This document shows positions 29,176 to 32,640 of a stretch of DNA of 64,000 nt, one piece after another. A model generated the notes under the pieces. That model saw only the letters and a program-made list of their open reading frames with translations, ran no database searches and was not told the origin of the DNA. The translations under genes were made by a program, and so were the position numbers. Numbering within the stretch: position 1 is the stretch's first letter; each line of letters starts with the position of its first letter. The stretch spans positions 133,686 to 197,685 of the forward strand of contig JAIORZ010000011.1 of NCBI GenBank assembly GCA_021107855.1. Direction: 5' to 3'. Source of the stretch: an archaeon. GTDB taxonomy: Archaea; Nanobdellota; Nanobdellia; Pacearchaeales; GW2011-AR1.

Positions 29176-29616
29176 ATGAGATGCCCATACTGTAATTCGA
29201 GTGAATTGAAGGTCACGGATAAGCGGGATTCTGGTGCGGAGACTAGGAGGAGAAGGGAGTGTTTGAAGTGCAAGAAGCGGTTTACGACGTATGAGCGGGT
29301 GGAGTTGGATTTGAGTATTATTAAGAAGGATGGGAGGCGGGAGAAGTTTTCGCGAGACAAGTTGTTTAATGGGCTGATTAAGAGTCTTGAGAAGAGGCCG
29401 TTTTCGAGCGAGGAGATAGAGAAGCTTGTTGATGATATAGTCGCGAATGTTTATCGGGTTGCGAAAGATAAGGATATTAAGGGTTCGAGGGTCGGGGAAA
29501 TTGTGATGGCGAAGTTGAAGCGGTTGGATAAGGTTGCGTATATTCGGTTTGCGGCGGTTTATCGGGATTTCGCGGATATAGAGGATTTCAGGGAGGAGAT
29601 TAGGAAATTAAATTAA
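29176..29616 (+). CDS. nrdR: Transcriptional repressor NrdR
   Basis: MRCPYCNSSELKVTDKRDSGAETRRRRECLKCKKRFTTYERVE zinc ribbon plus ATP-cone. Confidence 0.97.
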   Translation: MRCPYCNSSELKVTDKRDSGAETRRRRECLKCKKRFTTYERVELDLSIIKKDGRREKFSRDKLFNGLIKSLEKRPFSSEEIEKLVDDIVANVYRVAKDKDIKGSRVGEIVMAKLKRLDKVAYIRFAAVYRDFADIEDFREEIRKLN

Positions 29617-29627
29617 AATGGTAAAAA

Positions 29628-31784
29628 ATGAAAAAGATTAGAAAAAGAGATGGAAGCGTTGTATTCTTTCAGGCGGACAAGATTGAGGGCGCGATTTGGA
29701 AGGCGGTTAGGGCTGTTGGCGGTAAAGATCGGGAGAGGGCGAAGGAGATTTCTGGAAAGGTTGTTGAGAAGTTGGAGCAGGTTTATGGGGAGCATGGGAT
29801 TTCTGATGTTGAGGATGTGCAGGATTTGATTGAGAAGGTTTTGATTGAGGAGGGGCATGCGAAGGTTGGGAAGGCGTTTATTTTGTATAGGAAGAGTCGG
29901 GAGGAGTTGCGGGACGTCAAGGGTTTGTTTGATACTATCGAGGCTGTTGAGGATTATATTGGGCTGAATGATTGGATGGTTAAGGAGAATTCGAATATGG
30001 GTTATAGTTTGCAGGGTTTGAATAATTATATTGCGACGAAGATTGTTGCGAATTATTGGATGAGGCGGATTTATCCTGAGGCGATTCGGAAGGTTCACGA
30101 GGCTGGTGATTTGCATGTTCATGATTTGGGGACGCTTGGGGCTTATTGTGTTGGTTGGGATTTGAAGGATTTGTTGATGGTTGGGTTTAAGGGAGTGAAG
30201 GGGAAGGTTGAGAGTAAGCCCGCTAAGCATTTGAGGACGGCGTTGGGTCAGATGGTGAATTTCTTTTATACGTTGCAGGGTGAGTCAGCTGGTGCGCAGG
30301 CGTTTTCCAATTTTGATACTTTGCTTGCGCCGTTTATTCGTTATGACAAATTGAGTTATAAGCAGGTGAAGCAGTCAATGCAGGAGTTCGTGTTTAATAT
30401 GGCTGTTCCGACTCGAGTTGGTTTTCAGACGCCGTTTACTAATATTACGATGGATTTGGAGGTGCCGAGTTATATGAAGGATGAGTATGTTGTTGTTGGT
30501 GGGGAGTTGAAGATGGAGAAGTATGGGGATTTTCAGGAGGAGATGAATATGGTGAATAGAGCGTTTGCGGAGTGTATGCTCGAGGGTGATGCGAGTGGTC
30601 AGGTTTTTACTTTTCCGATTCCGACTTATAATATTACGAAGGAGTTTGATTTTGATAAGCCTGAGTATGATTTGATTTGGGAGATGACGGCGAAGTATGG
30701 GATTCCGTATTTTTCGAATTTTGTGAACTCGGATATGAAGCCTGAGGATGCGAGGAGTATGTGTTGTCGGTTGAGGATTGATAATACTGAGTTGAGGAAA
30801 CGGGGTGGTGGTTTGTTTGGGGCGAATCCTCTGACTGGTTCGATTGGTGTTGTGACGATTAATATGGCGCGGCTTGGTTATGTGTCGACCAGCGAGGACG
30901 ATTTTTTAACGCGGCTTGATAATTTGATGGAGCTTGCTAAAGAGAGTCTTGAGATTAAGCGGAAGACTATTGAGAGGTTTACGGAGATGGGACTTTATCC
31001 GTATTCGAGGTTTTATTTGAGGAAGGTTCATGAGAGGTTTGGTGAGTATTGGAAGAATCATTTTGGGACGATTGGTCTTTTGGGAATGAATGAGGCTGTG
31101 AAGAATTTTATACCGGGTGATGATATTACGACGGAGAAGGGTAAGGCTTTTGCTTTGAAGATTTTGGATTTTATGAGGGAGCGTATGATTGAATATCAGG
31201 AGGAGACGGGGAGTATTTATAATTTGGAGGCGACTCCGGGAGAAGGGACGACTTATCGTTTTGCGCGGATGGATAAGAAGAGGTTTGGTCGGATTATTGT
31301 TGCGAATGAGGAGTCTGTTCAGGCGGGGGCTAAGCCCTATTATACTAATTCGTCGCAGTTGCCGGTTGATTTTACGGATGACGTTTTTGAGGCGCTTGAT
31401 TGTCAGGACGAGTTGCAGTGCAAGTATACTGGCGGGACGGTGTTTCATACTTTTGTTGGAGAGAAGATGACGACGGATGCTGTTAAGAGGGTGGTGGAGA
31501 AGATTTCGAGTAATTATCATTTGCCTTATTTTACGATTTCTCCGACGTTTTCGATTTGTCCGATTCATGGATATTTGAGTGGGGAGCATGAGTATTGTCC
31601 GAAGTGTGATTTGGAGGTTGCTAGAGGAGAAGTTAGTGCGGCTGATGATGTTGTCGCGGAAAAAGAAGTTGAGAAAAAGCTTGTTGAGATTGAGGTTAGT
31701 CCTAATAAGGTTGCTGAGAAGATTAGTGCATTTAGCGAAGAATCTAAAATAAAATTGGGAGGTGATACCAATGGCGAGGACTAA
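29628..31784 (+). CDS. nrdD: Anaerobic ribonucleoside-triphosphate reductase, catalytic part lacking the glycyl-radical segment
   Basis: N-terminal ATP-cone; SICPIHGYLSGEHEYCPKCD zinc site near C-terminus; no RVxGY motif in this frame. Confidence 0.96.
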   Translation: MKKIRKRDGSVVFFQADKIEGAIWKAVRAVGGKDRERAKEISGKVVEKLEQVYGEHGISDVEDVQDLIEKVLIEEGHAKVGKAFILYRKSREELRDVKGLFDTIEAVEDYIGLNDWMVKENSNMGYSLQGLNNYIATKIVANYWMRRIYPEAIRKVHEAGDLHVHDLGTLGAYCVGWDLKDLLMVGFKGVKGKVESKPAKHLRTALGQMVNFFYTLQGESAGAQAFSNFDTLLAPFIRYDKLSYKQVKQSMQEFVFNMAVPTRVGFQTPFTNITMDLEVPSYMKDEYVVVGGELKMEKYGDFQEEMNMVNRAFAECMLEGDASGQVFTFPIPTYNITKEFDFDKPEYDLIWEMTAKYGIPYFSNFVNSDMKPEDARSMCCRLRIDNTELRKRGGGLFGANPLTGSIGVVTINMARLGYVSTSEDDFLTRLDNLMELAKESLEIKRKTIERFTEMGLYPYSRFYLRKVHERFGEYWKNHFGTIGLLGMNEAVKNFIPGDDITTEKGKAFALKILDFMRERMIEYQEETGSIYNLEATPGEGTTYRFARMDKKRFGRIIVANEESVQAGAKPYYTNSSQLPVDFTDDVFEALDCQDELQCKYTGGTVFHTFVGEKMTTDAVKRVVEKISSNYHLPYFTISPTFSICPIHGYLSGEHEYCPKCDLEVARGEVSAADDVVAEKEVEKKLVEIEVSPNKVAEKISAFSEESKIKLGGDTNGED

Positions 31785-31893
31785 ATGCGAGGTGTGGAGT
31801 CGTGTCGTGGGATACTTGAGACCAACTGAGCGGTGGAATGACGGAAAGTTAGCTGAGTTTGGGGATAGGGCTGTATTTTCTAATAAGTGTTAA
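31771..31893 (+). CDS. Detached glycyl-radical domain of NrdD (40 aa)
   Basis: MARTKCEVWSRVVGYLRPTERWNDGKLAEFGDRAVFSNKC contains RVVGYLRP; SD GGAGGTGAT at 31758-31766; overlaps nrdD stop in another frame. Confidence 0.9.
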   Translation: MARTKCEVWSRVVGYLRPTERWNDGKLAEFGDRAVFSNKC

Positions 31894-31935: not shown

Positions 31936-32640
31936 ATGAAAATGAAAATTGCTGGTTTGCAGAAGGTTTCGACGATTGATTATCCGGGCGAGATTTGTTG
32001 TGTTATTTTTTTGTGGGGGTGTAATTTCAGATGTGGGTTTTGTTATAATCCTGATTTGGTGATTAAAGATAGTGAGGGTGGGTTTTCTGAGGGGAGGGTT
32101 TTGGAGTTTTTGAAAAAAAGGAGTGGTAAATTGGATGGGGTTTGTATTACTGGGGGTGAACCGTTGATGAGTTTGGATTTTGATTTTGTGAGGAAGATTA
32201 AAGATATGGGTTTTAAGATTAAGGTGGATAGTAATGGCAGTTTTCCGGAGAAGTTGAGGGAGATGGTTGAGGGTAAGTTGGTTGATTATATTGCGATGGA
32301 TGTTAAGGGGGCGAAGGAGGATTATGAGAAGATTGCGGGAGTTAGTGTTGATGTTGGGAAGATTGAGGAGGCGATTAGGATTGTGGATGATTTTGGCGGG
32401 GAGTTTCGGACGACGGTTGTTCCGGGGTTGCATGATGGGGAGAAACTGAAGAAAATGGGAAAGTGGATGGGCGAGGTTTGTGGGGGAAAGCCCAAGAGAA
32501 TTTTTTTGCAGGGGTTTAAAGGAGGTAAGGGGATGATTGACCCGTCGTTTGTTTCGAAGGACGAGGTTTTGGAGGAGGAGTTGATTCGGTTGAAGGATGG
32601 GTTGAAGGATTTGTTTGGCGAGGTTGGTGTTAGAGTATAA
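31936..32640 (+). CDS. nrdG: Anaerobic RNR activating protein (radical SAM)
   Basis: IDYPGEICCVIFLWGCNFRCGFCYNPDLV CxxxCxxC motif; GGEPLMSLD; follows nrdD. Confidence 0.93.
   Translation: MKMKIAGLQKVSTIDYPGEICCVIFLWGCNFRCGFCYNPDLVIKDSEGGFSEGRVLEFLKKRSGKLDGVCITGGEPLMSLDFDFVRKIKDMGFKIKVDSNGSFPEKLREMVEGKLVDYIAMDVKGAKEDYEKIAGVSVDVGKIEEAIRIVDDFGGEFRTTVVPGLHDGEKLKKMGKWMGEVCGGKPKRIFLQGFKGGKGMIDPSFVSKDEVLEEELIRLKDGLKDLFGEVGVRV

What the first reader, a model, noticed from the sequence alone, without database searches (positions are those of the whole stretch)
31740..31893. Split anaerobic ribonucleotide reductase: glycyl-radical domain in its own 40-codon ORF
nrdD (29628-31784) carries the ATP-cone and zinc site (CPIHGYLSGEHEYCPKC) but terminates before any RVxGY motif. 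The motif (EVWSRVVGYLRPTERWNDGKLAEFGDR) is encoded from 31771 in a different frame. It has its own ATG and an SD (GGAGGTGAT), and it overlaps the nrdD stop by 14 nt. The small frame is closed by a TAA 7 codons upstream of its ATG, so only a frameshift in a very short window could fuse them. The active radical would then have to be supplied in trans, conceptually like the stand-alone glycyl-radical cofactor GrcA/YfiD for pyruvate formate-lyase. NrdD also has an extra ~55 aa acidic linker after the zinc site, which could act as docking surface.
Basis: partly seen in the sequence, partly recalled or inferred. Interest (0 to 1): 0.9.

Follow-up and report, generated by a model that had tools for sequence, protein, structure and literature searches.

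The report
Ribonucleotide reductase with separate radical subunit
In this anaerobic archaeon the enzyme that makes DNA building blocks is encoded as two proteins, a large catalytic core and a 40-residue piece that must carry the essential radical, and the same two-part design recurs in many archaea, CPR bacteria and cultured Halanaerobiales, which turns a 'one-chain' radical enzyme into a plug-in system that can be tested.

Summary
In this Candidatus Pacearchaeota genome, nrdD (29628-31784) has the ATP-cone, the catalytic barrel and the zinc site but stops before the glycyl-radical loop. A 40-aa ORF (31771-31893, own ATG and GGAGGTGAT) encodes exactly that loop. It is not an assembly error, pseudogene or frameshift. 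The split is kept in all nine genomes of the genus where both parts can be read, in 87 distinct stand-alone ORFs that I collected, and in 34 of 36 NrdD-bearing Halanaerobiales species. In Halanaerobium the complete nrdG gene lies between the two. A tree needs at least 10 split/fused changes. The small ORFs have Shine-Dalgarno sites (70/87 against about 15 expected) and evolve under purifying selection. The fourth zinc cysteine sits on the core (51 pairs) or on the small protein (18), never on both. No class I/II reductase was found in the genome. Best reading: a two-polypeptide class III ribonucleotide reductase whose NrdG-activated glycyl-radical subunit docks in trans, an obligate subunit, not a GrcA-like spare. 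The acidic tail as docking surface is unsupported. Stand-alone NrdD-type radical domains also occur beside intact NrdD and on many viral contigs, as candidate spare parts. No biochemistry exists; I found no prior report in the papers held.

The parts
29176..29616 (+). nrdR, NrdR transcriptional regulator (zinc ribbon + ATP-cone), first gene of the apparent operon
   Evidence: TIGR00244 E 4.6e-50; Pfam Zn_ribbon_NrdR and ATP-cone
29628..31784 (+). nrdD core subunit: ATP-cone, 10-stranded barrel with finger-loop SMCC, zinc site, no glycyl-radical loop (718 aa)
   Evidence: Pfam NRDD positions 1-528/562 and ATP-cone; NF006126 E 0, covering 2-659/684; Foldseek to solved class III RNRs E 7.6e-31
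31557..31607 (+). zinc site CPIHGYLSGEHEYCPKC (C-x2-H ... C-x2-C), all four ligands on the core in this lineage
   Evidence: sequence; comparison with fused and split relatives
31608..31781 (+). C-terminal tail of the core (about 58 aa), genus-specific, variable length, predicted disordered
   Evidence: pLDDT below 50 for residues 666-718; length variation
31758..31766 (+). Shine-Dalgarno sequence GGAGGTGAT of the small ORF, inside the nrdD 3' end, kept across the genus
   Evidence: statistics
31771..31893 (+). stand-alone glycyl-radical subunit, 40 aa (MARTKCEVWSRVVGYLRPTERWNDGKLAEFGDRAVFSNKC); radical glycine in RVVGY
   Evidence: Pfam NRDD 531-562; purifying selection; conservation
31939..32640 (+). 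nrdG, radical-SAM activase (NrdG2 type) that would install the glycyl radical
   Evidence: TIGR02495 E 2.5e-54, above its cut-off; Radical_SAM

Best explanation
This is a two-polypeptide class III (anaerobic) ribonucleotide reductase. The NrdD core binds substrate and effectors and carries the finger-loop cysteine and the zinc site. A separate small protein carries the radical glycine. NrdG is inferred to abstract hydrogen from the glycine of the small protein, free or loosely docked. The small protein then inserts its RVVGY loop into the barrel, where the glycyl radical generates the catalytic thiyl radical. Near the break the two chains meet at the zinc site; in many relatives the small protein itself supplies the fourth (or the third and fourth) zinc ligand, so zinc would staple the subunits. 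Shown here: the split, its conservation, separate translation signals, selection on the small protein, zinc-ligand complementarity, linkage to nrdG, absence of another NrdD or class I/II enzyme in this genome. Inferred: physical assembly, radical transfer in trans, exchangeability of an oxygen-damaged small subunit.
For: The two ORFs tile the NRDD profile, 1-528 and 531-562. The own genome has only these two NRDD matches and no class I/II large subunit; the genomes of L061, L063, L064, L087, L102, L105 and L111 also gave no class I/II match. All nine readable genus members show the same overlap and SD. Over 87 distinct stand-alone ORFs: 37 overlap the core gene, 40 lie 0-100 nt away and 7 further; 70 of 87 have an SD of 5 nt or more against a null mean of 14.7 and maximum of 26. 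Differences by codon position in the genus: 0.17/0.12/0.51. Halanaerobiales: 36 of 38 genomes carry NrdD, none has a full-length fused match, and 34 have a separate domain; the order is nrdD-nrdG-small gene in Halanaerobium kushneri and six further species. Tree: 13 split/fused changes, at least 10 forced by well-supported branches. Zinc complementarity: 51 core-only, 18 small-only, 0 both, 5 neither. Fused relatives have only a short linker at the break, mostly 2-3 residues.
Against: No protein, activity or EPR data. The readthrough model placed the small domain at low confidence only (pLDDT about 57-66) and no docking geometry was measured, so assembly is not shown structurally. The genome is about 85% complete, so another enzyme could be missing. 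Zinc complementarity partly reflects where each ancestral gene broke, and the pairs are not phylogenetically independent; the Fisher p of 5e-13 is therefore too small.
Confidence: 0.88

Rival explanations
1. The two frames are joined during expression, by programmed frameshift, stop readthrough or RNA/protein splicing, and the functional enzyme is a single chain.
For: In the window the ORFs overlap by 14 nt in +1 frame, so a shift within about 30 nt could fuse them; in some relatives the small ORF is in frame after a stop.
Against: The junction varies in all three frames, from long overlaps to intergenic gaps. In Halanaerobiales the complete nrdG gene lies between the two; in G717 the small ORF is 31 kb from the core and in G877 and G915 it is on another contig. 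SD plus start codon is present in most.
Confidence: 0.05
2. Sequencing or assembly error, or a decayed gene.
For: A single indel could create such a frame break.
Against: The same break occurs in nine genus members and in cultured isolates with independent assemblies; the small ORF is under purifying selection.
Confidence: 0.01
3. The small protein is only a repair part, as GrcA is for pyruvate formate-lyase, and a complete NrdD elsewhere does the routine work.
For: Stand-alone NrdD-type radical domains next to or apart from a fused NrdD do exist in other genomes (L116; G960, G898, G924, G882, G806).
Against: In this genome, in the genus and in Halanaerobiales the only NrdD lacks its own radical domain; the small ORF matches NRDD and not the GrcA/PFL Gly_radical family.
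Confidence: 0.04

Closest known systems
Class III ribonucleotide reductase NrdD with NrdG (Prevotella copri 8p23, Thermotoga maritima 4coi, phage T4 1h78)
   Same: Same core fold, ATP-cone, finger loop, zinc site, RVxGY radical loop and adjacent NrdG activase
   Different: In solved members the radical domain is the C-terminus of the same chain (P. copri residues 676-739, PMC11226230); here it is a separate 40-aa protein
GrcA/YfiD and phage T4 Y06I, spare-part proteins of pyruvate formate-lyase (PMC8683613)
   Same: A small autonomous glycyl-radical protein acting in trans on a barrel enzyme, activated by the partner's radical-SAM activase
   Different: GrcA rescues an oxygen-cleaved but originally complete enzyme and has PFL-type sequence; here the core never has a radical domain and the small protein is NrdD-type. 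That paper says only PFL spare parts have been validated and asks whether others exist
Split class II reductase NrdJa/NrdJb and split class I NrdA of phage Aeh1 (PMC9669993, PMC3653736)
   Same: Ribonucleotide reductase encoded as two chains that assemble
   Different: Different classes and break points; the radical-carrying residue is not what is separated
Fragmented nrdD of Aeromonas phage phiAS4 and intron/intein-split phage nrdD (PMC3653736)
   Same: nrdD coding region in pieces
   Different: Phage-specific interruptions; not a conserved stand-alone radical subunit

Membership tests
Class III ribonucleotide reductase (NrdD) | NRDD catalytic barrel and finger-loop cysteine | tested here: met
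   NRDD 1-528/562; SMCC invariant in alignment A2; Foldseek to class III structures
Class III ribonucleotide reductase (NrdD) | C-terminal zinc site of four ligands | tested here: met
   CPIHG...CPKC present; metal binding itself not testable here
Class III ribonucleotide reductase (NrdD) | glycyl-radical RVxGY loop on the same polypeptide | tested here: not met
   the loop is on a separate ORF
Class III ribonucleotide reductase (NrdD) | dedicated NrdG radical-SAM activase | tested here: met
   nrdG2 at 31939-32640
Class III ribonucleotide reductase (NrdD) | glycyl radical formed and NTP reduced | not testable with these tools
   needs EPR and activity assay
GrcA/YfiD autonomous glycyl radical cofactor | PFL-type Gly_radical domain sequence | tested here: not met
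   the small ORF matches only NRDD in Pfam and NrdD models in NCBIfam
GrcA/YfiD autonomous glycyl radical cofactor | partner enzyme has its own radical domain that is repaired | tested here: not met
   single core without radical domain in the genome
Split intein or trans-spliced protein | intein halves at the break | tested here: not met
   only ATP-cone and NRDD found in the core; in this lineage the small ORF starts only 9 residues before RVVGY, with no room for an intein half

The most novel reading that the evidence does not exclude
NrdD-type glycyl-radical domains are exchangeable radical cartridges: obligate subunits in split enzymes, oxygen-damage spare parts beside fused NrdDs, and virus-encoded parts that act on the host reductase during infection. 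They would be the first spare-part system for a glycyl radical enzyme other than pyruvate formate-lyase.
Probability: 0.45. Interest if true: 0.9.

Novelty: new variant of a known kind. Interest (0 to 1): 0.8.

Why it matters
Glycyl radical enzymes are thought of as single chains in which the radical loop must leave the barrel, be activated and return. A natural enzyme with the radical on a detachable 40-aa protein allows direct tests: whether the activase works on the free domain, whether one radical protein serves many cores, what stoichiometry is needed, and whether oxygen-cleaved radical domains are simply replaced. It is the only ribonucleotide reductase detected in several of these small genomes, and the design recurs in cultured Halanaerobium and Orenia, so it can be tested at the bench. 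Gene finders and family models can miss or mislabel the 40-aa gene, so such genomes may look as if they carry a broken reductase.

Tried and rejected
Frameshift/readthrough fusion: rejected because the junction varies in frame and distance and nrdG intervenes in Halanaerobiales. Assembly error or pseudogene: rejected by relatives and selection. Intein or intron origin of the break: no intein signature at the break. The acidic tail as docking surface: not conserved and predicted disordered. The structure model of the Uhrbacteria locus L112 read through its stops gave low confidence for the radical domain and does not prove docking. Ten literature searches and targeted reading found no report of a split NrdD with a separate radical domain; only open-licence papers are held. 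A first SD test did not correct for picking the best start codon; it was redone with that correction. The first quick tree contained long branches and was replaced.

Full report
What is in the sequence. The nrdD gene at 29628-31784 encodes 718 residues with an ATP-cone (3-92) and Pfam NRDD positions 1-528 of 562; the ORF at 31771-31893 encodes 40 residues matching NRDD 531-562. The genome holds only these two NRDD matches. Upstream is nrdR and downstream nrdG2, so the apparent operon is nrdR-nrdD-small ORF-nrdG. NCBIfam and Pfam returned no dedicated model for a stand-alone NrdD radical domain; the small ORFs match only the C-terminal ends of full NrdD models.

The host. The closest named relatives are Candidatus Pacearchaeota / Nanoarchaeota MAGs; the window's assembly is 0.94 Mb, 14 contigs, about 85% complete. 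No class I/II large subunit was found in it, nor in the genomes of seven other split loci tested, including CPR ones; L075, Orenia and, weakly, the two Halanaerobium genomes do have a match.

The split is conserved. In the genus, nine genomes show the same overlapping arrangement with GGAGGTGATA-like SD; only the overlap length changes (8 to 71 nt). Across family, order and class the break recurs with a 4-nt ATGA overlap, short gaps or long gaps. My ORF census classed 74 of 150 distinct core sequences as split and 75 as fused, with 87 distinct stand-alone radical ORFs. Split loci include Pacearchaeota, Woesearchaeota, Diapherotrites, Micrarchaeota, several CPR groups, Spirochaetes, and cultured Orenia metallireducens, Halanaerobium kushneri and H. 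salsuginis. In the order of H. kushneri, 36 of 38 genomes carry NrdD, none has a full-length fused match and 34 have a separate radical domain. In H. kushneri and six further species the order is nrdD, nrdG, small gene, which excludes frameshift or readthrough there. In CPR genomes both states are common.

The small ORF is a gene. Of 87 stand-alone ORFs, 70 have an SD match of at least 5 nt; shuffled upstream regions, maximised over the same candidate starts, give a mean of 14.7 and a maximum of 26. Within the genus the differences per site at codon positions 1, 2, 3 are 0.17, 0.12, 0.51.

How often it arose. A careful tree of 87 cores needs 13 changes between split and fused (bootstrap range 11-14), with at least 10 forced by well-supported branches. 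Direction cannot be read from an unrooted tree; the sampled Bathyarchaeota and Bacteroidota homologues are fused, so repeated splitting, some re-fusion and gene transfer are all possible.

Where the break falls. In fused relatives the last zinc cysteine and the radical motif are separated by a very short linker, typically 2-3 residues (CPKCGAKCEVYSRVVGY). Three break positions are seen. (1) After the fourth ligand (this genome): the core has C-x2-H ... C-x2-C. (2) Before the fourth ligand: the small protein begins, for example, MKCNKKTEVYSR with cysteine in exactly the register of the missing ligand. (3) In a distant NrdD group the core ends with one CxxC and the small protein begins with the other. 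For types 1 and 2 the fourth cysteine is on the core in 51 pairs, on the small protein in 18, on both in none and on neither in 5. This is what one expects if the two chains still form one zinc site. It is not independent evidence per pair, because the break point is inherited.

Mechanism. From established knowledge of class III enzymes, NrdG abstracts hydrogen from the glycine, and the buried glycyl radical generates a thiyl radical on the finger-loop cysteine. Here that glycine must come from the small protein, because the genome offers no other. Inferred steps: activation of the small protein, docking into the barrel, zinc-supported assembly, and possibly exchange after oxygen cleavage. GrcA is the functional precedent for in-trans radical delivery (PMC8683613, PMC12338860). 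The structure model of the core matches solved class III enzymes. The tail 666-718 is predicted disordered, and its counterpart in other split NrdDs is often short, so it is unlikely to be the general docking surface. The model of a readthrough NrdD plus radical domain gave only moderate to low confidence for the latter.

Beyond split enzymes. Some genomes with a fused NrdD carry an additional NrdD-type radical domain, as GrcA does for PFL (L116, G960, G898, G924, G882, G806). E. coli-type NrdDs in Bacillota and CPR are also split in places, with 95-150 aa radical proteins beside nrdG, beside the core or far away. In viral contigs, of the best 80 loci for the radical-domain alignment, 74 stand-alone ORF hits had no NrdD core in the locus, and in 30 whole contigs checked the radical domain was the only NRDD match. 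One such ORF lies directly before a terminase-like gene (L251). The search was seeded with stand-alone domains and kept the best 80, so the proportion is biased, and most contigs are fragments. Andorfer et al. state that only PFL spare parts are validated and ask whether others exist (PMC8683613); these are concrete candidates.

Verdict. A real, recurrent, previously unreported (as far as the open literature held here shows) two-polypeptide form of class III ribonucleotide reductase. It belongs to the class III family by core, zinc site and activase but fails the one-chain feature; it works like GrcA without being a GrcA.

Noticed in passing
L227-L306 (viral contigs), e.g. L251, L228, L288: Many viral contigs encode a stand-alone NrdD-type glycyl-radical domain without NrdD, often with an N-terminal zinc ribbon; L251 has it directly upstream of a terminase-like ORF.
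   Followed up: partly
L223:1424-1945 (same contig as L249): A Halanaerobiales contig, also listed as viral, has a radical domain fused to a SLOG (YAcAr) nucleotide-binding domain, next to a DnaB-like helicase gene.
   Followed up: partly
L116:6204-6470: A Moraniibacteriota genome has a complete fused NrdD followed by a second, zinc-ribbon plus radical-domain ORF: a candidate spare part for class III reductase.
   Followed up: partly
L207/L208, L209/L210, L211, L218/L219: E. coli-type NrdDs are also split, with 95-150 aa radical proteins that may be adjacent, on another contig or 31 kb away from the core.
   Followed up: partly
L168 (core): One split NrdD has lost the zinc cysteines (SIDPVHGY...FSPY), suggesting assembly without zinc.
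   Followed up: no
L038, L043, L045: Several relatives carry large in-frame insertions in NrdD (one ORF of 1800 aa), probably inteins, at profile positions near 157, independent of the C-terminal break.
   Followed up: no
L035 (G009): One genus member has a C-terminal tail of about 380 acidic, repetitive residues on the NrdD core before the overlapping small ORF.
   Followed up: no
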